A stretch of 38,435 nucleotides of DNA from a virus, in the IMG/VR virus record IMGVR_UViG_3300022074_000131, positions 1 through 38,435 of that record; one strand, written 5' to 3'. The notes under the pieces are model-generated. The model saw only the letters and a program-made list of their open reading frames with translations, was not told the origin of the DNA and made no database searches. A program made the translations under genes and the position numbers. Below, in pieces: positions 5,047-30,407 of the stretch. Each line of letters begins with the position of its first letter. The first letter of the stretch is position 1.

Positions 5047-5895
5047 ATGCCATTAGATTTTACACCAGAACAAATAGGTATTCCAACAGACGTTAACTTT
5101 CCTGTGGAGTTTGAGCCTACAAAATATGACAAGTCGAAGTATGTTATCAACGGTAACACAGGTGAATACCTTGGTATCGTAGGAAGCGGCTTTACCTGCG
5201 CCAACCACGGTGACTTCTTTACTAAGGCACATAACACAATCTCTGAGCATCTTGGCGAAGAGTTTTGTGACAGCATGAACATCAAGTATCGCACCGCACG
5301 TAACAATGCGTGGGTTATGATGGACATGACTATGCCTAACGTGTTGCGACAGATTAAGTCAGAAATGCATAGCACCACCATTGCACCCCGGCTTATTGCC
5401 TTACATGGCATTGACGGTTCATGCAGTAACATGGTGTTCTTTGGGGCTATAGACTTCTTCTGCACCAACGGCATGGTCACTGGCGACTACGATAAGATCA
5501 AGCGCAAGAACACTGCCAACTTTAGCTTGGCAAAGTTTATCCAAGAGTTGGAGTCATCCGTCACTGACTTCTATACCACGGCTGACAGGTTCCAGCGTTG
5601 GGCAGAAACAAGCCTGATGACTGTCAATGTCAAGGCACTGCTTGATTCTGTTGTCAAGTCTGAGCGTAAGTCAGAGAAGATGTTTACCTTGTATAATCAA
5701 GAGGTTAGCACTCGTGGACGTAATGTATGGGCATTGTATTCTGCCTTTACAAACTACTCTACATATGCTGATGAGCGTAATGGGTTTAACCTACGCAACA
5801 CAGGTAACGATACTGTCGCACAGTCCATGTGGGCGAGAGAGCAGGAAGTTGCCAAGTGGATCAGTTCACCACAGTTCCAAGCGGTTGCGGCATAA
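5047..5895 (+). CDS. DUF932 (phage/plasmid-like) protein
   Basis: This gene encodes a 282-residue protein matching the DUF932 phage/plasmid-like family. The family block AIDFFCTNGMVTGDYD is at about residues 138-153, followed by the helical stretch (FIQELESSVTDFY, then the RFQRW helix), and the family's length is similar. Members occur in phages and plasmids near replication genes, but their function is unknown. AAAGGAGAA precedes the ATG. It is the first gene after a putative promoter and its stop overlaps the integrase start (TAATG). Its own promoter and leader suggest stronger expression than the small early genes. Confidence 0.7.
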   Translation: MPLDFTPEQIGIPTDVNFPVEFEPTKYDKSKYVINGNTGEYLGIVGSGFTCANHGDFFTKAHNTISEHLGEEFCDSMNIKYRTARNNAWVMMDMTMPNVLRQIKSEMHSTTIAPRLIALHGIDGSCSNMVFFGAIDFFCTNGMVTGDYDKIKRKNTANFSLAKFIQELESSVTDFYTTADRFQRWAETSLMTVNVKALLDSVVKSERKSEKMFTLYNQEVSTRGRNVWALYSAFTNYSTYADERNGFNLRNTGNDTVAQSMWAREQEVAKWISSPQFQAVAA

Positions 5896-6821
5896 TGTCG
5901 CGACTAGCTAGGTTGGTAGATGATTACTATTCTTCCTATGATTACAGGAACTTACGTGATGAAACTAAAGCACATTATAAGTATCTGTTGAGTGTCATGC
6001 TAGATACAAAGGTAGAGGGCAAGCCCCTCTGCCAGCATGACTACACTAATCTGTCCACTCGTGTGGCAAAGATGTCATACAACCAGTGGTGCGAGAAAGG
6101 ATTGTCAATGGCTAATCATTTGCTGTCTGCAACACGCATTGTATTCAATCATGGGTTGCGCGAAGAATTATGTGTCATAAACCCCTTCTCAAACGTCCGT
6201 AAACGCCCCACAGAGAGGCGTAAGGTGATCTGGGGTAGGGAAGATGTCCGAAAGTTCTTAGACGCCGCCTACGGTGATTTTAGCACACGTAATATCGGAC
6301 TGATTGCTCACATGGCATATGAATGGTGTCAGCGATTAGGTGATATGCGCCTGCTTACATGGGATGCAATCGACTTTGAGGCTCGTACTGTTTATATAGA
6401 ACAATCAAAACGTAAAGCAGAGGTACATCTGCCTATCGAAGATGACTTGTTTGATATGCTTATACAACAAGAAGAGGATTTTGGCTTTCAAAAGTACGTT
6501 GCACCTAGACCCAAGCCACGTGAGGGTGTTTACATACCATATAGTATGACTAAACTACCTTTACATGGGCGTAAGTTGATGGATCAGGCAGGACTGCCAC
6601 GAGAACTGCGTCTATCTGATTTACGAAGAACTGGCACGACTGAAATGGTAGAGGCGGGTGTCGGTATGGCACAAATTATGTCGGTTACAGGACATGCTAA
6701 TCCAAGTTCAGTCAAACCATATCTAAAAAATACGTTGTCAAGTGCAAATAATGCATTGACAGCACGAAAATCTCATGGTATAAGCATAGCAAGTGCCGCA
6801 AAGGAAAGTGATATTACATGA
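5895..6821 (+). CDS. int: Tyrosine recombinase (integrase)
   Basis: This gene encodes a 308-residue protein with an N-terminal SAM-like DNA-binding part (residues 1-100) and a C-terminal catalytic domain. Visible catalytic residues are Arg147 (QRLGDMRLLTWDAID), Lys172 or Lys174, Arg244 (SDLRRTG), His267 (TGHANP) and nucleophile Tyr276 (KPYLKNT). The first residue of the usual HxLR box is Ser241 instead of His. The ATG at 5895 overlaps the preceding stop; an upstream in-frame ATG at 5829 would run through the DUF932 gene. It lies inside the replication operon with no adjacent non-coding DNA to hold attP, and no repressor was found. It may integrate the phage or act in another recombination step. 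Confidence 0.85.
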   Translation: MSRLARLVDDYYSSYDYRNLRDETKAHYKYLLSVMLDTKVEGKPLCQHDYTNLSTRVAKMSYNQWCEKGLSMANHLLSATRIVFNHGLREELCVINPFSNVRKRPTERRKVIWGREDVRKFLDAAYGDFSTRNIGLIAHMAYEWCQRLGDMRLLTWDAIDFEARTVYIEQSKRKAEVHLPIEDDLFDMLIQQEEDFGFQKYVAPRPKPREGVYIPYSMTKLPLHGRKLMDQAGLPRELRLSDLRRTGTTEMVEAGVGMAQIMSVTGHANPSSVKPYLKNTLSSANNALTARKSHGISIASAAKESDIT

Positions 6822-14280: not shown

Positions 14281-16212
14281 ATGATAAGCAATCAATTACC
14301 TACAGATTACCAAAACTTTATAGCACTGTCACGCTATGCACGTTGGAAAGAAGATGAGCAACGGCGTGAGACATGGAGTGAAACAGTACAAAGATACTTC
14401 GATTACATGGAAGGTCATATAGGTGCTAATTACCAGTACAAGTTACCCGCTGACTTACGTGCTGAACTAGAAGAAGCTGTGCTTAATATAAGCGTTATGC
14501 CTAGTATGAGGGCATTGATGACCAGTGGCCCCGCACTGGACAGATGCCACGTAGGTGGATACAACTGCTCTTACGTGCCTGTGGATAGCCCACGTGCGTT
14601 TGATGAGACTATGTACATCCTTATGTGTGGCACAGGTGTAGGCTTCAGCGTTGAACGTCACTGTATTGAGAAGCTACCTATCGTAGCAGAAGACTTTCAT
14701 CGTACTGATACAGTAATTAAGGTAGGAGATAGCAGACCCGGCTGGGCTAAGTCACTTAAAGAGTTGATTGCTATGCTATACATAGGACAGATACCAGCAT
14801 GGGATGTATCAGAGGTACGTCCTGCAGGTGCTAGGCTCAAGACATTTGGCGGTAGGGCATCAGGCCCACAGCCTTTAGTTGAGTTGTTTGAGTTTGTTGT
14901 ACAGAAGTTTAGAGGTGCAGCGGGACGCAAGCTGTATCCTATTGAGTGTCACGACATTATGTGTAAGATTGGTGAAGTGGTAGTCGTGGGTGGTGTTCGC
15001 CGCAGTGCATTGATTTCATTGTCTAATCTTAACGATGACCAGATGGCTCACGCTAAGTCTGGTAAATGGTGGGAGTATGAAGGACAACGTGCGTTGGCTA
15101 ACAACTCTGTAGCCTACAAGACTAAGCCTGAGATGGGTACGTTTATGCGTGAGTGGTTGTCTCTGTATGACAGCAAGTCAGGTGAGCGTGGTATTTTCAA
15201 CAGGCAGTCAGCTATTAAACAAGCTGCTAAGAATGGCAGACGAGATACGGAACATGACTTTGGATGTAACCCTTGCAGTGAGATAATCTTACGCCCATAT
15301 CAGTTCTGTAACTTGTCAGAGGTAGTGGTGCGTCAAAGTGATACACTTGACACACTCAAAGAAAAGGTTAGACTAGCTACAATATTGGGTACATTCCAAT
15401 CTACGCTGACTAACTTTAAGTATTTACGTAAGATATGGAAAGACAACACAGAAGAAGAAAGATTGCTGGGTGTATCTCTTACAGGTATTATGGATAACCC
15501 GATGACATCTAAGGCTGGTGAAAAGCTGCCCATACTGCTTGGTATACTAAAGGACGAGGCGGTACGCACTAATGAAGCTATGGCAAAGCAGTTAGGAATA
15601 CCACAGTCAACTGCTGTTACCTGCGTTAAGCCTAGCGGCACAGTGTCACAGCTTACTGACGCTGCGTCAGGTATACATGCTAGGCACAATCCGTACTACA
15701 TACGCACTGTACGTGGTGACAACAAAGACCCGCTTACACAGTTCCTTGTCTCACAAGGCATACCTTCTGAACCTGACGTAATGAAACCCGACTCAACGAC
15801 AGTGTTCAGCTTTCCTATGCAGTCACCATTGGGTGCTATCACACGTACCCAGATGAACGCAATAGAGCAGCTAGAATTATGGCTCACCTATCAGCGTTAC
15901 TGGTGTGAGCATAAGCCATCTGTAACTATCTCTGTTAAGGAGAATGAATGGATGGACGTAGGTGCTTGGGTGTACAAACACTTTGATGAGGTGTCTGGTA
16001 TCAGCTTCCTGCCATTTAGTGAGCATACATATCAGCAAGCACCCTATCAGGATATAGACAAAGATGAATACAAAAAGTTCTTGACAAAAATGCCAAAGAA
16101 TGTAGACTGGTCATTGCTGCAGGAGTTTGAGAAAGAAGACACCACATCAGGTGGGCGTGAGTTAGCGTGTACTGCAGGTGTGTGTGAGATTGTAGACATA
16201 GAGGCAGCGTGA
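14281..16212 (+). CDS. B12-dependent (class II) ribonucleotide reductase
   Basis: This gene encodes a 643-residue enzyme that reduces ribonucleotides to deoxyribonucleotides with adenosylcobalamin. It is the monomeric type resembling the Lactobacillus leichmannii enzyme. Cys332 is the thiyl-radical residue, with Asn330 and Glu334 (NPCSEI); Cys343 lies 11 residues on, as Cys408 and Cys419 do in that enzyme, and Cys96 (GYNCSYV) is the partner of Cys343. Other landmarks are GTGVGFSVE, VKPSGTVSQL and the C-terminal cysteine pair (ACTAGVC). No separate small subunit is needed. The host must provide or import B12. Confidence 0.93.
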   Translation: MISNQLPTDYQNFIALSRYARWKEDEQRRETWSETVQRYFDYMEGHIGANYQYKLPADLRAELEEAVLNISVMPSMRALMTSGPALDRCHVGGYNCSYVPVDSPRAFDETMYILMCGTGVGFSVERHCIEKLPIVAEDFHRTDTVIKVGDSRPGWAKSLKELIAMLYIGQIPAWDVSEVRPAGARLKTFGGRASGPQPLVELFEFVVQKFRGAAGRKLYPIECHDIMCKIGEVVVVGGVRRSALISLSNLNDDQMAHAKSGKWWEYEGQRALANNSVAYKTKPEMGTFMREWLSLYDSKSGERGIFNRQSAIKQAAKNGRRDTEHDFGCNPCSEIILRPYQFCNLSEVVVRQSDTLDTLKEKVRLATILGTFQSTLTNFKYLRKIWKDNTEEERLLGVSLTGIMDNPMTSKAGEKLPILLGILKDEAVRTNEAMAKQLGIPQSTAVTCVKPSGTVSQLTDAASGIHARHNPYYIRTVRGDNKDPLTQFLVSQGIPSEPDVMKPDSTTVFSFPMQSPLGAITRTQMNAIEQLELWLTYQRYWCEHKPSVTISVKENEWMDVGAWVYKHFDEVSGISFLPFSEHTYQQAPYQDIDKDEYKKFLTKMPKNVDWSLLQEFEKEDTTSGGRELACTAGVCEIVDIEAA

Positions 16213-17123: not shown

Positions 17124-17355
17124 AGGACTGAGTAAATACGATGCTCCACTGCGTATACAATACCAGTGGGGCTACGATGCGTTTAAGCGTGGTGGTAGGT
17201 TTGTGACGAAAAATGGAAAACAAATGTTCCAAGAGAATCGTCCAAACCTTGACCCGAACACCATGCAGTACAGAGAGTGGCAGCGTGGTTGGAACGATGC
17301 TTACTATGAGAATTTAGAAAAGGGTAAATACAATGGGATTAAAGGAAGAAGCTGA
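17113..17355 (+). CDS. Ribosome modulation factor-like small protein
   Basis: This gene encodes an 80-residue protein starting at TTG 17113, with AAGGAG six bases upstream and no in-frame ATG before residue 36. The layout WGYDAFKRGGR (19-29), NPNTMQY-like spacing and WQRGWNDAY (58-66) resembles the RMF/CrpP pattern, in which a GYxAxxxG block is followed by NP and WxxGWxxA. RMF pairs ribosomes into inactive dimers in bacteria; a phage version might alter host translation. The similarity is short and could be coincidence. It overlaps both neighbours. Confidence 0.45.
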   Translation: MRPKGLSKYDAPLRIQYQWGYDAFKRGGRFVTKNGKQMFQENRPNLDPNTMQYREWQRGWNDAYYENLEKGKYNGIKGRS

Positions 17356-17377
17356 ACAGTGGATGAAGGAGAGATAC

Positions 17378-17716
17378 ATGAGTAACATTACAGCAACGGA
17401 GTACCAGAACAAAGCAGCAGACACTGCTATCTTTCCAAAAGAAAAAGCCCTTGAGTATCTTACTCTTGGGCTTACTGGTGAGGCAGGGGAGATTGCTAAT
17501 AAAGTAAAGAAGCTACTACGTGATGGTGCAGACAGAGAAGAGCATCATGCTAAGTTAAACGCCATTGGCAAAGAGTTGGGTGACGTTATGTGGTATTGTG
17601 CCATGCTTGCAAAAGAAGTGGATATGAATCTTGGTAGAATCATGGAAGACAACTTGGAGAAACTGGCTGACAGAAAAGCTAGGAATCGCTTACAGGGTGA
17701 TGGAGATAACAGATAA
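17378..17716 (+). CDS. mazG: MazG-like nucleotide pyrophosphohydrolase
   Basis: This gene encodes a 112-residue all-helical MazG-type enzyme that hydrolyses nucleoside triphosphates, or possibly ppGpp, to monophosphates. The metal-binding acids are in LTGEAGEIANKVKK and KELGDVMWYCAML, the expected ExxE...ExxD layout. The ATG at 17378 (MSNITATEYQ) has AAGGAG directly upstream. An in-frame ATG at 17333 would add 15 residues and also has a weak ribosome site. It is the last rightward gene, just before the terminator, and with the RNR completes the nucleotide set. Confidence 0.85.
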   Translation: MSNITATEYQNKAADTAIFPKEKALEYLTLGLTGEAGEIANKVKKLLRDGADREEHHAKLNAIGKELGDVMWYCAMLAKEVDMNLGRIMEDNLEKLADRKARNRLQGDGDNR

Positions 17717-17722
17717 AAGTGA

Positions 17723-17747
17723 GGGGGCTTGATTGCCCCCTTTTTTT
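17723..17747 (+). terminator. Rho-independent terminator between convergent operons
   Basis: GGGGGC (17723-17728), loop TTGATT, GCCCCC (17735-17740) and seven T. It directly follows MazG and ends the rightward operon. The leftward structural operon ends at 17746, inside the T-run. In that direction the same stem is followed by TCACTTTTATC, so it may also slow leftward transcription. Confidence 0.92.
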
Positions 17748-20700
17748 ATTGTACACCTTCTCTGAATTGTTTACTACTAGGTGTGTCTATGTCAGTGACA
17801 TCTGTTAAGATATCCCTTGTAAGTCTTTCCAAAACACGTTTCTTAGAGAAAGGTTCTTTATAATCCTCTCTGTACATTTTTAACAATGTTTCAAAGTCTT
17901 CTGTTTCTGAAATAGGCCCGTGACCTTCTTGTGCATTATAATCTTTTATAATTATTTTTCTTATATCAGCAGGAACTTCTTTGTAGAATCTTGCACGATT
18001 TTTACGTTTATAATCATCGTCTACATCACCTATGGCGTATTCCATAGCTGTGCTAACTTTAGCACTTTTAATAGCTTGAACAATAGTTCGTAAGTATCTT
18101 CGTTTTATAGTATCACTACGCATTGCTTGATATGACGGGGATACTACTTCATTAGATAGTACTTCTTCTATAAACTCTCCTTGCAGTTTTCTTGCCTCAT
18201 TATCTATCTGTGGATCAGTTGTTCTGCGTGGGGCAACCTCTACCCAATCAAACTGTAGCCTATTTAACTCTTTTTCTGCGTAGTTTTTACGCTCTTCCAA
18301 AGACAGACCAGTTATCTGACGAAGTAAAGGATTGACATTACGTAGCGGTATGCGTTTAGTTGTGCTTTGCATTGCCTCACGTGGAGAAAGTGGGCTGTAC
18401 AAGATAGGATCATCCGTTGGAACAGGCATAGTTCTTGTTGCCTGCTTTAATAAGTAGGGGATAAACTCTATATCTTCGTTTACAGCTACATTTGCATAAG
18501 CAGGATCATACTGACCATAAATATCTCTAAGCATACCTGCACCAACAGTGTATGTACTTAGATAGTTACCTAGATACTTAGCCAAATTACGCTCAAGACT
18601 TATATCAGTTTCTGACAGTTCACCTAATGTTGCTTTTACTAGACCATCAACAATGTCAAGTCCTGTACCAGCCCTAAACTGGCTACCAGCCAAAGCCTCT
18701 ACAGCTTCCCTTGTGTTAAACTTTTCAAATGAAACTTTGTCATTGTCGTGAAGTGTTATGCCATATTCTTTGTCTAGTACACCACCCGGTCTACCCATTC
18801 TATAGAGAAGGTCTGCTACATAAGCAAAGGCAGTAAACGGACCAAGAGCAGCACGTACATTCATCGTGCCACCAGCGGTTATATTTTCGTCGGCTGCAAC
18901 CATACCCGGCAGAGTTTTATACTCGTAAAACTTAGTGGTTTCATCGCCATGATGCACACGCATGTAATAAAATGCACCTAGTGTTGCAAGACCACTAAAC
19001 TGCTTACCTGCACGTACAGCAGTAGCCTGAGAACCACCACCCGTTTTATTTAGAATACCATACATATTTAGCATACCAAGAACAGGCATATGTTCATAGA
19101 CAAATCTAAACTGATTAATTAAATAACGGGGAAATGGCACAAAGGTAGAACCAAAAGTACTGCTTGTACCTTGAATAAAAGTGTCAGCGAAAGAGTTAAA
19201 GAAGCCTTCTCTACCCTTAAACCTACCTGTTTGGTAAGTAAAGTCCAGTGCTTCATCCATTGCTCTGGCAATTATCTTGTTATCCAAAGAACTAAATTTG
19301 CGCTTTTTCAAAAAGTCATCTAGTCCACGAATGCCTGCTTTTTTAAATACACCATCAGGGTCTAGTGCAATAGCCTTATCTATCTCACGAGAGAAGATAG
19401 CAGACTTGAACATATTATCACTCATGGTGTTAAACGTATTTGCAAATCTTGCTGCACGTAACATAGGACTAGATTCTACACCACTGATACCAGCTATATC
19501 GCCCAACTCTCTAAACATCTCTTGAGCCTGCGCTGATCTGCCAAGTCTAGGGTCACGCATTATTTTTGTTAGGATTGCCGTTTCTTGTGATTGCATACCA
19601 AAAAACAAGTCATCAAAAAGCAGACTCTTACCCCCAGCACGAAGCTGTGCTACACCAGTCTTTACGGCAAACTTAGCTTCATCTCTAAGGGCTTCATTTC
19701 CTATAGATTTTAAGCCAGCTTCACCTAAATTCCATAAACCTGCCCCAACATTTTCTAAGGCATAAACATAGTTACGCATGAATCCATTTGTAGTATTACG
19801 TACAGTTGTTGCTGCCTGTACCGTCATAAAACCAATACGTGTCTTGTTTAACGCACCAAAAAAATCGCCTACACGATGTAATCTAAAACGTCCTTTAGTC
19901 AGTTGTTTAGCCTTTACATAAGCAGCCTCTGTGCTGGAACCAAGTTCCATAGCTGACTTGTCAATCTCTGTAAGTTCTTTTTTGATTAAGTCTGCTTCAG
20001 CCTTAGATAGTCGCCCTTGCGTTCCAAGTTTTCTAGCAGCTTCTGAGATATCAGCTACATAGAATGCACTAAACTGGTCAAGTGATATGCCGTGGTCCTG
20101 CATGATTTTTACCATGCCTTCTGTACTTAGCTGTCCACCTTTTAATCCACGTGCAATTCTTGAGGTAATGCGTTCAGCAAAATCTTCTTCACTACCACGC
20201 TTTACACCCTCACGTGGACCAATCTTTTTTACTACCGCTACAGCCGCAGCAGCTATATTAGCTATTTCTTTGTCAGCTATTCCGACTGTAAGCTTCTCAT
20301 ACGGAGTCAAATCTTTCTTTAGTTTTGCTCCTGCCTCCATAGCTTCTTTGCCAACAGTTTCTTCTAAAGATAATTTTAGTGTATCAGCTTTTTGTTTTAC
20401 CAGCTTTCCATATGTTTTACTCTTCATCAACGGTGCTGTTTTTGTTTTATAGGTTTTTTCAATAATCTTGTTTTGCTTTGCAAGCTGTGTCATCACATAC
20501 TGCTCTGCTACATTAGAGCGTATGGCTTTCTGTGCGCCTGTAAGACCACCCAGCAATCCACCAGTAAGAGCAGACACACCTGTTGCCAAAGATATGTTGG
20601 CTAAATCTACTTCATCATATCCATCAATGGCCTTTACTCTAGCCATTTCTTGTGCTGTAACACCAGCCCCAGCACCGATGGTTTCAACAGCCATACCACC

Positions 20701-21306
20701 AACTGCTGCTTTGTATCCACCATTACGTAAACCTTTTGTGATGTTTACAATTCTGTCACCAACTCCGGCTGGAGCAACAGCTTCGCCCTTTAGTTTTTTG
20801 ACTGCCCGTTGTCTAGCGGTATCAAACGCAATGTCATCTAATTGTTTTGTAGTAAGAGTTTGACCAGTCTTTAAAGCTTTTTGTTTGATTACTTCTTTTA
20901 TACCTAGCTTTATGCCGTGCTGCGCTGCTATAGCACCAGCTTTTGCAGCACCAAAAGAAAACATACTTGCGTAGGTAGAAGGTGCAGTAAGCACACCACC
21001 AAGATAATCTTGCGCTGCGGTCAAGCCAAAGTCGCTGTCCATTTTGTCATAGGTATCCATTAACCTACCAAAACGAGCAACACCTTCGTCATCCGTTTGA
21101 TTATTCACGTAGTATAAATCACGTAAAGCAGTAGCTTCATTTACGTTCTGATAACGAAAATGTTCCATAAATGCGTCATATATTTCTTCTGGCGCATTAA
21201 CTTCTTTTTCTTCTCGTTCTGCCAGAAACATCTGTGCATCATCCAAGAATTTCTGGTTGTTCAGCAAAAACTCTTTGTCTAGCTTTTGTTCTTCTTGTTC
21301 AGCCAT
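17746..21306 (-). CDS. Large internal virion protein (probable ejection protein)
   Basis: This gene encodes an 1186-residue protein, the last of the leftward operon. Its size and place among virion genes fit the large internal (ejection) proteins of podoviruses that form a conduit for DNA entry. Residues about 100-135 and 195-260 are glycine- and alanine-rich with hydrophobic stretches (ISLATGVSALTGGLLGGLTG), which could insert in membranes; most of the rest is helical and basic. No lysozyme or transglycosylase motif could be seen. The ATG has AGGAAG upstream. The functional call rests on size, position and composition. Confidence 0.6.
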   Translation of the reverse strand: MAEQEEQKLDKEFLLNNQKFLDDAQMFLAEREEKEVNAPEEIYDAFMEHFRYQNVNEATALRDLYYVNNQTDDEGVARFGRLMDTYDKMDSDFGLTAAQDYLGGVLTAPSTYASMFSFGAAKAGAIAAQHGIKLGIKEVIKQKALKTGQTLTTKQLDDIAFDTARQRAVKKLKGEAVAPAGVGDRIVNITKGLRNGGYKAAVGGMAVETIGAGAGVTAQEMARVKAIDGYDEVDLANISLATGVSALTGGLLGGLTGAQKAIRSNVAEQYVMTQLAKQNKIIEKTYKTKTAPLMKSKTYGKLVKQKADTLKLSLEETVGKEAMEAGAKLKKDLTPYEKLTVGIADKEIANIAAAAVAVVKKIGPREGVKRGSEEDFAERITSRIARGLKGGQLSTEGMVKIMQDHGISLDQFSAFYVADISEAARKLGTQGRLSKAEADLIKKELTEIDKSAMELGSSTEAAYVKAKQLTKGRFRLHRVGDFFGALNKTRIGFMTVQAATTVRNTTNGFMRNYVYALENVGAGLWNLGEAGLKSIGNEALRDEAKFAVKTGVAQLRAGGKSLLFDDLFFGMQSQETAILTKIMRDPRLGRSAQAQEMFRELGDIAGISGVESSPMLRAARFANTFNTMSDNMFKSAIFSREIDKAIALDPDGVFKKAGIRGLDDFLKKRKFSSLDNKIIARAMDEALDFTYQTGRFKGREGFFNSFADTFIQGTSSTFGSTFVPFPRYLINQFRFVYEHMPVLGMLNMYGILNKTGGGSQATAVRAGKQFSGLATLGAFYYMRVHHGDETTKFYEYKTLPGMVAADENITAGGTMNVRAALGPFTAFAYVADLLYRMGRPGGVLDKEYGITLHDNDKVSFEKFNTREAVEALAGSQFRAGTGLDIVDGLVKATLGELSETDISLERNLAKYLGNYLSTYTVGAGMLRDIYGQYDPAYANVAVNEDIEFIPYLLKQATRTMPVPTDDPILYSPLSPREAMQSTTKRIPLRNVNPLLRQITGLSLEERKNYAEKELNRLQFDWVEVAPRRTTDPQIDNEARKLQGEFIEEVLSNEVVSPSYQAMRSDTIKRRYLRTIVQAIKSAKVSTAMEYAIGDVDDDYKRKNRARFYKEVPADIRKIIIKDYNAQEGHGPISETEDFETLLKMYREDYKEPFSKKRVLERLTRDILTDVTDIDTPSSKQFREGVQ

Positions 21307-26114: not shown

Positions 26115-29100
26115 CTATCGTGCATTAGCAAATTTAAATGGCTGTTCGGCAAAGGCGAGGTAGATGTATGTTTGACCGCTTGTATTTGAATCACTCAAAC
26201 TAGTACGCAATTTAAATCCATTACTTAAAAAATCTACATCATAATTTGATGTCATCTCAGCACTCGCTGTATCAGCTTGCAAAACCTCGTTCACAGGATT
26301 GTCTGGGCTTCTTACACTATCACGCAAATTCCAACCAGATGTTGAAGAAGACTCTTTGGTAAGGACAAATGAGGGCCGGAAGCCTAGAAAGACAAACGTG
26401 CCATCTGTGTTGCCGTTGCCGACATAGCTGCCGACCTTGCTATAGCCATCAACGCTGTGGAAACAGTAGGCTATTTTATCTGTGTCACTATTACCTATAT
26501 CAGAGTGATTACCAAGATACCCACCAATACTAAATACACTATCTGTTGGAACAGTGTCATTAAAGTGATTATAACCCGGATTATAAGCCGCACCTGTAGT
26601 TTCAAGATTTAACATATGAGTGTTAGCAAGAACATCAGGCACTTGCACAAACCAATTTGTACCGTGGTCTCTTGCTTTTGCTATAATTATGTCAGGAGCA
26701 ACAGTTAAGCCATGACCTACAGTTCCCGTTGAAGATCCTAAAGCATCCCAAGTGACTATACTAAACCCCGCATCGGTTGACGCCGATACAACCGACTGTA
26801 TCGAACCTTTTAAATTAGTAGACCCGTGTGTGTCTGTAGTGTTAACTTGTCCACCCATGCCGCTGTGTACATTACAATAATAGTACAAAGTTGGCGCACC
26901 GTATGCAAGAGCTATAACTGTTTTTGCACCAGACGAACCCGGTGTTCCTGAAGTCGTTACACCTACTGTATATTCTGAACCACTGCCATGAGTTCCGTCT
27001 GATGTAGTAGAAAAACGTAGCGGGTGTCCTGAGTTACTGCTATCTGATTGGTCAAATGTATATGTGCCACCTTCTTGTAAACTTAGTGTAGGAGCAAATG
27101 TAGTGTTACCATCAAATCTATATTTATTTTGTCCACTATCATCTGCAACTGTTACTGCGTATGTTTGTGTAGGAGATATACCGCCAGCTTTCCAGTTCCA
27201 CGATGCATAGGTTTGGCTTGATTCGTTTGTTTGACCAGATGGACCTGTTGTAAACCCATTCGCATCAAAAGACGTAACTTGTGTTGTTGAAGTACCTTCT
27301 GCAGATGTTGAATGTGAACCTAAATACTTTCCAGCACCACGAACTGAGTCGTGCAAAGCATGTCCTGATGTGCTTGAACGCTCTTTAATCCACACCCAGT
27401 CAGGACTTGCTATACCTTCTTTTGGAATGTTGTCATCTACTAGTGCAAGGTAGCCTGTAGGTGGTGTGTAGTAGAAACTGCCATAGCTATTGCCATCTGC
27501 AGCTTGTGCGCCATTAGAAGGTGTTTTATTACCAGCAAAACTATCATCTTGACCTAAATTAATTACTGAATGAGTTGCACCTGTGGCACTTGCTGAAAGG
27601 ATTGGGTAAAACTCTGTTCCAGTTATTGAAGTGACCGTGTACACCAAAGTATTGTTTTTATAAAACTTGACAGTCCCTGCATCAATATCAAGTGCCAAGC
27701 CCATTACGTCACCAGCGGTGTATGCTGTTCCTGTGTTTACCGTTGTACCGTCTTGTATAATCGTACCACTACTAATACCATTGTAGTTGACCGAATAATT
27801 AGTATTAGGATTGGCATCGGTAGTTAATAGTTCATTTCCAATGCCGTACATAAATCCACCCGCCCCAGATACAGACTCAAAGACAGTTTCCCAATACCAT
27901 TTCCCACTGGTAACACGAAAAGTTGATCTTGCATTACGCCACGTTCCTGAATTATGAGTACATCTTAAATTTCCTTCAGAAAATGTATGTGCGGAAGAGT
28001 AAGAATCTACCGGACTCAATGTAGCAAAGTTTTGTGTAGGGCTGTCGATCATTCGATCTTCTGAAGTTATACCAGAACTATCCCAATGATTGGTATTGCC
28101 ACTTGTATCTGCCCCAACAGTGTTAGTTGCGCCTGAACCTGTGCCTGTTTGTTTAAACTCAAGCAGCCAACCATTATTACCATAACTTCCTGAATATGTT
28201 TTTGGAATCCAGTAACCATTAGCACCCACTTGAGCAAATTCTGTTGGGGCAACAACAGCACCATCTATATTGTAAAATTGTGATATATAACCGTTATGGT
28301 ATCTTGTATCTTGTCCACCAGAACGGCGATTTATGGCGGCAGATTCTCCGCCAACATTCCATCCACTACTTGAATTGCTTGCAATGCTGCTTCTTTCATC
28401 GGTGGAAAAGCTAGTTTCTTCAACACCGTTTACGTACAACCTAAGTCTTTCTGAGGCGGTTGAAGCGGTGCGATCAAAGGTAATGTGAAAATTATAAAAT
28501 GTTGCAGGGTTTAAAAATTTTCTATTAGTAATTAACCTAGCTTGTGAACCACCCACATTATAGTTTACAAAAAGATATATTTGACCATTAAGAAATGTAA
28601 ACGCTGTGTTTCCGGGGCCGTCTACTCCAAATACAGTGTCATAATCATCAGAAGCTGATAAGACGTTAGTGCGTTTTAACCAAAAATTTACAGTCCATTT
28701 GCTTATGTCTGTAGGTGATGATCCTTGCGTTCTGCTTAGATAAGCACTGCTTCCTGCCTCAAAACGTAAGCTATTAGTTATGCTGATTGTATCTTGCGGA
28801 TGCTGTGCGCCACCTGAACCAATGTGTTGTTCTGCACCATTGCCTGTGTATAAGATAGTTTCAAAATGGTCATCAGCTTGGCTGCTTTGTCCGGGGCCGA
28901 TTGTTATGTCTGGTAGGTTGGATGTGCAGAGGGCTAAAAAACCAGTTGGAACCGCATACTCAAACGTGCCAATACCATTGGCATCTGAGTTTGCAGAGGA
29001 TACATCTTTACTATCTTGACCAAAGTTTATTGAGTAGGTTTCATTATAAGAACCGCCTCTAGTTAAACATACAGTGAGTTCCGTGACAGCATTTGTAAAA

Positions 29101-30407
29101 ACTGTGCTTACGTCCAAACCACCTGACCCAGCAGAAGGGTCACTGCTACCACGATATGTGCCATTTTTTGCAACATAAAATTTTTGATTATCAACATCTA
29201 AAGCAAATGAATAAATATCTCCGTTGCTTGTTGAATTGTTGCCTTGCGAGTTATAAGGACTAGATTGAGTTGAACCATCAACATCAACAGCTTGATTGTA
29301 GGTACTCATAAAAATACCTTTTGATTGGGCGACCTCATCAAACCCTAAACTAGCGTTCGACCCAAAACCAACATAAGTACCGCCACCACTAGCATAAGAA
29401 TCAACGTGAAGTTCCCAATACCATTTACCGCTTGATGGTATTGAGATTGTACCGTGAATACCCCTATTGTTTGTAGAGGTTGCTATTTTAAGATTACCTT
29501 CTGAAAGTGTGCCAAGAGTGCTATAAGCCAATGGGTTTAGCGTAGCAAAATTATTAGTCGGGCTATCCAGCAGAACATCATCAGAAACTATGCCACTTAC
29601 AGCCCAGTTGTTTCCGTTACCAGACTGGTCATCGCCAATATTTGTTTGCGCTGTATTGCCCTGAGTTGTGGTAGATGTGCCTGTTCCTTGAAATGTTAAG
29701 TGATAACCATTAACACCGTGACTCGTTGTGCCGTTGTCAGCATATTGCTTTGGCACCCACACCCCGTCTTTTGTTTCTCCAAAAGAAGTTGGATCTAATG
29801 CTTGACCATCAACCATATGTATTTCTGCCATATACCCATTAAAATATCTGGTATAAGCGGAAACGTAACGACCCCATCTTTGTTCTTGACCATTGGTGTT
29901 TACAGAAGCCATTACGCTGTTTAGACCCGGAAATGTTCCGGTATAGTCTGTTTGTTGTGTGCCATTTACATAGACTTTAACACGATCTGTATCTGTAGAT
30001 TGTGTGGTGTCATATGCAACAAGAAAATGATACCAAGAATTAGGGTCACGATATAGTCTTGGAGATGTTGGATTTGCGCCGCCATTTTGTGTGAATACTG
30101 CAAAATCATCACCTGTATCAAAAGCATAAGTGTTGTGACCCTGACCAGTTCCACTTCCAGTGTTTTTTGACGAAAATACAGTCCGAAAATCTCCGCTTCC
30201 TTGTGCAAGTTTAATCCATACAGAAAAAGTGTACCTCTTGTTGTCTGTTCCAGTTTGATTAGGGGTAAAAGTTAGATACGAACTCCCTGCTTCTTCAAAC
30301 CGCAAAGACTGACCAATGGTGTGATCATATACAGCACCACCAGCAAGCGCACCCCCCGGCGCACCTGTACCGCCTAGACCAGCTAAATTAGCTTGTAATA
30401 AACTCAT
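26115..30407 (-). CDS. Giant multidomain tail fibre with LamG, SPRY and cupredoxin-like modules
   Basis: This gene encodes a 1430-residue protein, a likely receptor-binding fibre. In order: a glycine-rich start; a LamG-like domain (about 33-245, RYTFSVWIKLAQG); a SPRY-like domain (about 300-490, SGKWYWELHVDS); a second LamG-like (about 545-765, WTVNFWLKRT); a second SPRY-like (about 805-985, SGKWYWETVFES); a block starting DWVWIKERSSTSGHALHDS (about 1003-1080); a cupredoxin-like domain (about 1085-1190) with His1128, Cys1178, His1181 and Met1184; and a C-terminal block (about 1200-1430) echoing the DWVWIKE type. AGGAG is 12 bases before the ATG. Domain names are judged by eye; adhesion to host glycans is inferred. 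Confidence 0.7.
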   Translation of the reverse strand: MSLLQANLAGLGGTGAPGGALAGGAVYDHTIGQSLRFEEAGSSYLTFTPNQTGTDNKRYTFSVWIKLAQGSGDFRTVFSSKNTGSGTGQGHNTYAFDTGDDFAVFTQNGGANPTSPRLYRDPNSWYHFLVAYDTTQSTDTDRVKVYVNGTQQTDYTGTFPGLNSVMASVNTNGQEQRWGRYVSAYTRYFNGYMAEIHMVDGQALDPTSFGETKDGVWVPKQYADNGTTSHGVNGYHLTFQGTGTSTTTQGNTAQTNIGDDQSGNGNNWAVSGIVSDDVLLDSPTNNFATLNPLAYSTLGTLSEGNLKIATSTNNRGIHGTISIPSSGKWYWELHVDSYASGGGTYVGFGSNASLGFDEVAQSKGIFMSTYNQAVDVDGSTQSSPYNSQGNNSTSNGDIYSFALDVDNQKFYVAKNGTYRGSSDPSAGSGGLDVSTVFTNAVTELTVCLTRGGSYNETYSINFGQDSKDVSSANSDANGIGTFEYAVPTGFLALCTSNLPDITIGPGQSSQADDHFETILYTGNGAEQHIGSGGAQHPQDTISITNSLRFEAGSSAYLSRTQGSSPTDISKWTVNFWLKRTNVLSASDDYDTVFGVDGPGNTAFTFLNGQIYLFVNYNVGGSQARLITNRKFLNPATFYNFHITFDRTASTASERLRLYVNGVEETSFSTDERSSIASNSSSGWNVGGESAAINRRSGGQDTRYHNGYISQFYNIDGAVVAPTEFAQVGANGYWIPKTYSGSYGNNGWLLEFKQTGTGSGATNTVGADTSGNTNHWDSSGITSEDRMIDSPTQNFATLSPVDSYSSAHTFSEGNLRCTHNSGTWRNARSTFRVTSGKWYWETVFESVSGAGGFMYGIGNELLTTDANPNTNYSVNYNGISSGTIIQDGTTVNTGTAYTAGDVMGLALDIDAGTVKFYKNNTLVYTVTSITGTEFYPILSASATGATHSVINLGQDDSFAGNKTPSNGAQAADGNSYGSFYYTPPTGYLALVDDNIPKEGIASPDWVWIKERSSTSGHALHDSVRGAGKYLGSHSTSAEGTSTTQVTSFDANGFTTGPSGQTNESSQTYASWNWKAGGISPTQTYAVTVADDSGQNKYRFDGNTTFAPTLSLQEGGTYTFDQSDSSNSGHPLRFSTTSDGTHGSGSEYTVGVTTSGTPGSSGAKTVIALAYGAPTLYYYCNVHSGMGGQVNTTDTHGSTNLKGSIQSVVSASTDAGFSIVTWDALGSSTGTVGHGLTVAPDIIIAKARDHGTNWFVQVPDVLANTHMLNLETTGAAYNPGYNHFNDTVPTDSVFSIGGYLGNHSDIGNSDTDKIAYCFHSVDGYSKVGSYVGNGNTDGTFVFLGFRPSFVLTKESSSTSGWNLRDSVRSPDNPVNEVLQADTASAEMTSNYDVDFLSNGFKLRTSLSDSNTSGQTYIYLAFAEQPFKFANAR

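What the first reader, a model, noticed from the sequence alone, without database searches (positions are those of the whole stretch)
26845..27165. Cupredoxin-like copper-site domain inside a tail fibre
Residues about 1081-1188 of the giant fibre hold His1128 and then Cys1178, His1181 and Met1184 in the order YYYCNVHSGMGG. This matches the type 1 copper ligand pattern of plastocyanin-like proteins (His...Cys-x2-His...Met). A copper-binding or copper-stabilised fibre, or one binding a host surface through such a fold, would be unusual.
Basis: partly seen in the sequence, partly recalled or inferred. Interest (0 to 1): 0.68.

Follow-up and report, generated by a model that had tools for sequence, protein, structure and literature searches.

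The report
Copper-site domain in phage tail fibre
A giant surface protein of a marine bacterial virus carries an inserted domain with the fold and the complete, strictly conserved metal-binding residues of blue copper proteins, a module that turns out to be widespread on the tails of marine viruses but has apparently never been described or tested.

Summary
Residues 1083-1190 of the 1430-aa minus-strand fibre protein hold His1128, Cys1178, His1181 and Met1184. AlphaFold2 gives a confident beta-sandwich (pLDDT 94.7) whose best PDB matches are copper proteins of the cupredoxin fold. A profile of the domain hits almost only cupredoxins in the PDB. In 376 complete copies from marine phages the four ligands read HCHM in 362 and HCHQ (Gln as in stellacyanin) in 9. 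Four copies lost Cys, His and Met together and none lost only one of Cys or His, as a used metal site predicts. The domain is a discrete insert (1078-1195) in a loop of DUF7483; close relatives, and two of three repeats in cyanophage S-B68, lack it. The same family ends the baseplate 'tail fibre connector' protein in about 336 records, nearly all cyanophages. No Pfam or NCBIfam family covers the window copy and the papers searched do not mention it. Shown: predicted fold, ligand conservation, modularity. Inferred: copper binding (about 0.85) and function. Most likely it is a copper-locked virion-surface module used in host contact; pure stabilisation, copper delivery to a receptor and electron transfer are rivals. 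Decisive: spectroscopy of the purified domain and ligand-mutant phages.

The parts
26115..30407 (-). 1430-aa virion fibre/appendage protein carrying the domain (LamG-like and SPRY repeats, then DUF7483)
   Evidence: ORF; Pfam SPRY 48.5 bits and DUF7483 319.9 bits; PHROG virion structural protein and tail fiber protein. The LamG-like reading of the N-terminus is by eye, not tested.
26823..27176 (-). inserted segment, residues 1078-1195, absent from relatives at the same place
   Evidence: empty-site alignment with CRP-811, MEP301, SS120-1, HTVC011P and S-B68 repeats 2 and 3; near relative L278 without insert
26838..27161 (-). cupredoxin domain, residues 1083-1190
   Evidence: AF2 pLDDT 94.7, pTM 0.88; PDB matches; profile search of the PDB
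27024..27026 (-). His1128, first predicted copper ligand
   Evidence: H in 373 of 376 complete copies
26874..26876 (-). Cys1178, predicted thiolate copper ligand
   Evidence: C in 372 of 376 complete copies
26865..26867 (-). His1181, second predicted His ligand
   Evidence: H in 372 of 376 complete copies
26856..26858 (-). Met1184, predicted axial ligand
   Evidence: M in 362, Q in 9, L in 1 of 376
27177..27407 (-). DUF7483, first part (residues 1001-1077), upstream of the insert
   Evidence: Pfam DUF7483 in two stretches; alignment
26118..26822 (-). DUF7483, second part (residues 1196-1430), downstream of the insert
   Evidence: Pfam DUF7483 1194-1423, profile 107-330; alignment

Best explanation
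The segment is a cupredoxin with an intact type 1 (blue) copper site of the amicyanin loop length (His...Cys-x2-His-x2-Met). It has been inserted as a self-contained module into a loop of the DUF7483 domain near the C-terminus of a tail-fibre-like virion protein. Inferred steps: the protein folds as apo-protein in the host cytoplasm and takes up copper after lysis. Because both chain ends of a cupredoxin lie opposite the metal, insertion by its two ends points the copper face away from the fibre. Copper ties the His loop to the Cys-His-Met loop, and this rigid, metal-bearing tip serves as an exchangeable module for contact with the host surface. Shown: predicted fold, ligand conservation, all-or-none ligand loss, modular insertion, virion-tail context of the family. 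Inferred: copper occupancy (about 0.85), outward display, and the role in host contact (about 0.45 given copper binding).
For: Fold: AF2 pLDDT 94.7, pTM 0.88, with Cys at the end of one strand, Met just before the next and the first His just before a strand, as in cupredoxins. Foldseek top hits include three-domain nitrite reductase 2dv6, plastocyanin, and pseudoazurin with an amicyanin loop. VIA-align: 2dv6 Z 10.1, 2.8 A over 104 residues, and all 50 listed rows are copper nitrite reductases or laccases. The same fold is recovered in the 446-aa context model, residues 93-210. Sequence: the profile of 72 members hits the PDB with 59 of the 60 listed sequences being cupredoxin-fold copper proteins, best 1.4e-7, plastocyanins about 2e-4, ligands aligned with ligands. 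Conservation: 362 HCHM, 9 HCHQ, 1 HCHL, 4 with Cys, His and Met lost together, 0 with only one of Cys or His lost. Single Cys in 363 of 376 copies. All ten divergent baseplate-connector copies and a Flavobacteriaceae copy keep HCHM. Modularity: empty sites; 4 of 89 DUF7483 second parts found with the window's own carry the insert; at least 5 gains or losses are forced by well-supported branches. Context: tail fibre or baseplate families.
Against: No copper measurement exists. Ligand-ligand distances in the model could not be read. The Asn that follows the first His ligand in plastocyanin, azurin and amicyanin (own knowledge) is Pro here and in 345 of 376 copies, so the second coordination sphere differs. 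TM-scores to single PDB chains are only about 0.5-0.6. The four ligand-less copies lie in only two related loci (L251, L232), so they may be one or two events. No data show that the domain touches a host. The pelagic hosts concerned are thought to be poor in TonB-dependent receptors (own knowledge).
Confidence: 0.6

Rival explanations
1. Copper is purely structural. The module is an Ig-like spacer or stabiliser on the virion surface, and the metal only rigidifies the beta-sandwich in seawater; no specific partner is contacted.
For: The family sits in many different virion proteins, sometimes in tandem or three per protein, next to Ig-like domains, as expected of a general-purpose decoration. 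The insert is often absent from close relatives.
Against: Ig-like phage decorations normally need no metal, and a strictly kept Cys-His2-Met set is more specific than stability requires. Axial Met-to-Gln variants are a change that in known proteins tunes redox behaviour (own knowledge).
Confidence: 0.25
2. Copper Trojan horse: the copper-loaded domain mimics a secreted copper carrier and docks on a host outer-membrane copper receptor, in parallel with the iron-based hypothesis for T4-type HxH fibres.
For: Iron-binding HxH fibres are proposed to act this way (PMC11705849). Azurin, a cupredoxin, was reported to bind the copper receptor OprC in Pseudomonas (PMC6907878).
Against: The azurin-OprC complex was not seen with functional OprC (PMC8610252). 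SAR11 and Prochlorococcus are thought to have few or no TonB-dependent receptors (own knowledge). The same domain sits in baseplate proteins as well as fibres.
Confidence: 0.13
3. Redox role: the type 1 site exchanges electrons with host surface or periplasmic carriers, or senses the redox state of the cell surface, to trigger a step of infection.
For: Type 1 sites with His2CysMet or Gln are electron-transfer sites in nearly all characterised proteins (own knowledge). The best structural match, 2dv6, is a nitrite reductase with a fused cupredoxin domain.
Against: No partner oxidoreductase domain is found in the window fibre or in the five relatives scanned; one relative type has a subtilase instead. 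A virion at the cell surface has no obvious electron donor.
Confidence: 0.1
4. No copper at all: a cupredoxin fold used only as a binding scaffold, with the ligand residues kept for packing or for another metal.
For: A few copies without ligands still exist (L251, L232), so the fold can be kept without them.
Against: The ligand residues are among the most conserved positions in a highly diverged family, and Cys, His and Met are lost together, not one by one.
Confidence: 0.1

Closest known systems
Type 1 copper cupredoxins: amicyanin, plastocyanin, pseudoazurin (PF00127 Copper-bind, PF13473 Cupredoxin_1)
   Same: predicted fold; His...Cys-x2-His...Met ligands in the same order; Cys-x2-His-x2-Met spacing as in amicyanin (own knowledge); ligands align in the profile search
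   Different: not stand-alone or periplasmic; part of a virion protein; Pro instead of Asn after the first His; the window copy is below Pfam detection; copper untested
N-terminal cupredoxin domain of three-domain nitrite reductase (2dv6, Hyphomicrobium)
   Same: best structural match, Z 10.1; also a cupredoxin fused to a larger protein
   Different: fused there to a redox enzyme; here inserted into a fibre domain without an enzyme
Cyanophage plastocyanin PetE (auxiliary metabolic gene)
   Same: a phage-encoded cupredoxin (described in PMC3037559)
   Different: PetE is a separate photosynthetic electron carrier made for the infected cell; this is a domain of a structural protein
HxH iron-binding tail fibres of T4 and alterophage R22Y (Ferrojan/Trojan horse hypothesis)
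   Same: metal proposed on the tail fibre of marine phages (PMC11705849)
   Different: different fold, metal and ligands; the window fibre has no HxH motif
Ig-like decoration domains of phage virions
   Same: modular beta-sandwiches inserted into or appended to tail, baseplate and head proteins (own knowledge)
   Different: no conserved metal site in Ig-like domains (own knowledge)

Membership tests
Cupredoxin fold | Greek-key beta-sandwich matching solved cupredoxins | tested here: met
   AF2 pLDDT 94.7; Foldseek E 1.8e-4, prob 1.00; VIA Z 10.1, 104 residues, 2.8 A
Type 1 copper site | His, Cys, His plus axial Met (or Gln) in order, Cys-His-Met on the last inter-strand loop | tested here: met
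   positions and strand boundaries; alignment to plastocyanin ligands; 371 of 376 copies HCHM or HCHQ
Type 1 copper site | four side chains within bonding distance of one point | not testable with these tools
   model coordinates are not exposed; only fold match and sequence alignment available
Type 1 copper site | copper bound, with intense S(Cys)-Cu charge-transfer absorption | not testable with these tools
   needs purified protein
Plastocyanin/amicyanin/azurin subfamily | Asn directly after the first His ligand | tested here: not met
   Pro in the window and in 345 of 376 copies
PF00127 Copper-bind | score above Pfam gathering threshold | tested here: not met
   no hit for the window copy even at E 10; 17 of 72 members match at E up to 0.1, best 5.1e-5
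Phage plastocyanin PetE | short stand-alone protein | tested here: not met
   domain lies inside a 1430-aa ORF
DUF7483 (PF24299) for the carrier domain | score above gathering threshold | tested here: met
   319.9 bits against cut-off 27, in two stretches interrupted by the insert
HxH iron fibre (T4 gp37 type) | HxH motifs | tested here: not met
   none in the 1430-aa fibre

The most novel reading that the evidence does not exclude
Marine phages display functional blue-copper domains on their tail fibres and baseplates, and the bound copper is needed for host recognition or for triggering infection. This would be a metal-dependent attachment mechanism linking phage infection to ocean copper, general to T4-like cyanophages and shared by Pelagibacter and Methylophilales phages.
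Probability: 0.3. Interest if true: 0.85.

Novelty: new variant of a known kind. Interest (0 to 1): 0.62.

Why it matters
If copper is bound, the virions of some of the most abundant viruses in the ocean, including very many sequenced T4-like cyanophages, are copper proteins. That would make copper a possible factor in adsorption, virion stability and trace-metal budgets, and give a testable copper counterpart to the iron-fibre hypothesis. It would also put a name on a recurrent domain that now reads 'hypothetical', 'tail fiber' or 'baseplate connector'. The first test is simple: a 118-residue domain, visible colour, four point mutants.

Tried and rejected
Chance motif: rejected by shuffles and conservation. 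Disulfide explanation of the Cys: a single Cys per domain argues against it; zinc is not excluded, but Cys-His2-Met in a cupredoxin fold is the copper arrangement. Fusion by assembly error: rejected, since the GC of the insert (0.424) is close to that of the gene (0.416), the frame is continuous and many phages share the architecture. Electron-transfer partner domain in the same protein: none found. Single-sequence searches of Pfam, NCBIfam and PDB found nothing for the window copy; only the family profile reached cupredoxins. A narrow five-member profile (A3) gave no PDB hit at 0.01. The genome-contig scan with the broad alignment failed for lack of a conserved stretch; the A3 scan found one cellular relative. 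The first tree run had mislabelled rows and was replaced. The fold of DUF7483 itself was not resolved, because the cupredoxin fills the match list. Papers: no open-access paper found that links cupredoxins to virion proteins; subscription papers and preprints were not covered. The invariance listed for alignment A1 is not used as evidence, because ligand-less copies had been left out of it.

Full report
What was checked. The window is a 38,435-base virus record. The protein is ORF 26115..30407 on the minus strand, 1430 aa. Shuffling the protein 20,000 times gives a loosely spaced His...Cys-x2-His...Met 43 times and the exact spacing never.

Carrier protein. Pfam finds SPRY and DUF7483 (319.9 bits, in two stretches, the best at 1194-1423); PHROGs finds virion structural protein and tail fiber protein families. 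Neighbouring genes are tail protein, major head protein and distal tail protein on the same strand, and replication genes on the other, so this is a tailed phage. Similar fibres occur in Pelagibacter, Roseobacter, Methylophilales and cyanobacterial phages.

A discrete insert. Aligned with CRP-811, MEP301, SS120-1, HTVC011P and repeats 2 and 3 of cyanophage S-B68, residues 1078-1195 are simply absent, just after WNWKAGG; repeat 1 of S-B68 has the insert. L278, 69% identical to the window's DUF7483 second part, has no insert. Of 89 DUF7483 second parts in the 80 loci nearest the window's own (87 with upstream sequence), 4 carry the insert. On a tree of 134 such parts the label changes 14 times, and well-supported branches alone force 5 changes (only 20 of 115 inner branches are well supported). 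The insert matches the gene in GC and frame.

Fold. From an alignment of 72 domains (A1) AlphaFold2 gave pLDDT 94.7 and pTM 0.88. Foldseek against the PDB ranks three-domain copper nitrite reductase, multicopper oxidases, plastocyanin and pseudoazurin (one with an engineered amicyanin loop) at the top; an aspartic-peptidase entry, SO1698, also appears with a similar sandwich. VIA-align gives Z 10.1 (2.8 A, 104 residues) for 2dv6, and the 50 listed rows are copper nitrite reductases and laccases. The 446-residue context model (pLDDT 84.2, pTM 0.86) shows the same domain at its residues 93-210. Independently of structure, the sequence profile finds cupredoxin-fold copper proteins as 59 of 60 listed PDB sequences, with the ligand columns aligned to plastocyanin ligands. 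The best whole-sequence E-value there, 1.4e-7, sums two domains; the single-domain plastocyanin matches are near 2e-4.

Conservation. I collected 376 complete copies from phage and viral contigs. Ligand sets: HCHM 362, HCHQ 9, HCHL 1, and HSSV, ESNY, DRTI, ESSA one each. So Cys, the second His and Met are kept together or lost together, apart from axial substitutions; the losses come from two loci and may be one or two events. At 70% non-redundancy, Cys and both His rank among the seven most conserved positions, with a Gly, a Phe and a Tyr, and a sparsely filled Asn column. Gln in place of the axial Met is the arrangement known from stellacyanin, and the spacing Cys-x2-His-x2-Met equals amicyanin's (both own knowledge). 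Pro instead of Asn follows the first His, so this is not a plain plastocyanin or amicyanin relative.

Breadth. The window copy matches 42 annotated phage records, all named after or isolated from marine hosts or seawater where stated, and at least 599 IMG/VR stretches. A divergent branch is the C-terminal domain of the 'baseplate wedge tail fiber connector' in many of 336 matching records, nearly all cyanophages; the N-terminus of one such protein matches T4 gp10; ten sampled copies all keep HCHM. Another architecture joins a subtilase, three cupredoxins and an Ig domain. One cellular relative was found in a Flavobacteriaceae MAG. No solved structure of the phage domain was found.

Mechanism. 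The evidence shows a cupredoxin-type domain with a maintained metal site used as an exchangeable module on virion tail proteins. I infer that it binds copper (about 0.85), loaded outside the producing cell, and that insertion by both ends displays the copper face outward. The role I consider most likely is a copper-stabilised contact module for the host surface. Pure stabilisation, copper delivery to a receptor, and electron transfer are the rivals. The azurin-OprC precedent (PMC6907878) is disputed (PMC8610252). The iron-fibre hypothesis (PMC11705849) is analogous, but the window fibre has no HxH motif.

Verdict. Observation confirmed; interpretation supported at the level of fold and ligand set; copper and function untested. 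It is a new variant of a known kind: a known fold and site in a new, widespread and apparently undescribed setting.

Noticed in passing
L103:2107-3303, L358-L367: The C-terminal domain of the cyanophage 'baseplate wedge tail fiber connector (gp9)' is the same cupredoxin family, in most of 336 matching phage records, nearly all cyanophages; the N-terminus of L103's protein matches T4 gp10.
   Followed up: partly
L213:922-6267, L257:526-5904 (P-HM1 PHM1_104 type): Proteins of about 1780 aa join a subtilase, three cupredoxins and an Ig domain; in several the last cupredoxin has Gln at the axial position.
   Followed up: partly
L279, upstream of residue 640 of its ORF: A different, unrelated-looking insert sits at the same DUF7483 loop, suggesting that the loop is a general insertion site.
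   Followed up: no
L273:2057-3277: Flavobacteriaceae MAG protein ending in the same cupredoxin after two His-containing repeats that look like CHRD domains (by eye, not tested).
   Followed up: no
window 5829-6821 (+): Integrase-like gene (phrog_1, 1.8e-31), so the phage may be temperate.
   Followed up: no
window 14281-16212 and 17333-17716 (+): Ribonucleotide reductase and MazG-like pyrophosphatase genes, typical of marine phages.
   Followed up: no
window 17746-21306 (-): 1186-aa protein beside the tail genes with no significant PHROG match.
   Followed up: no
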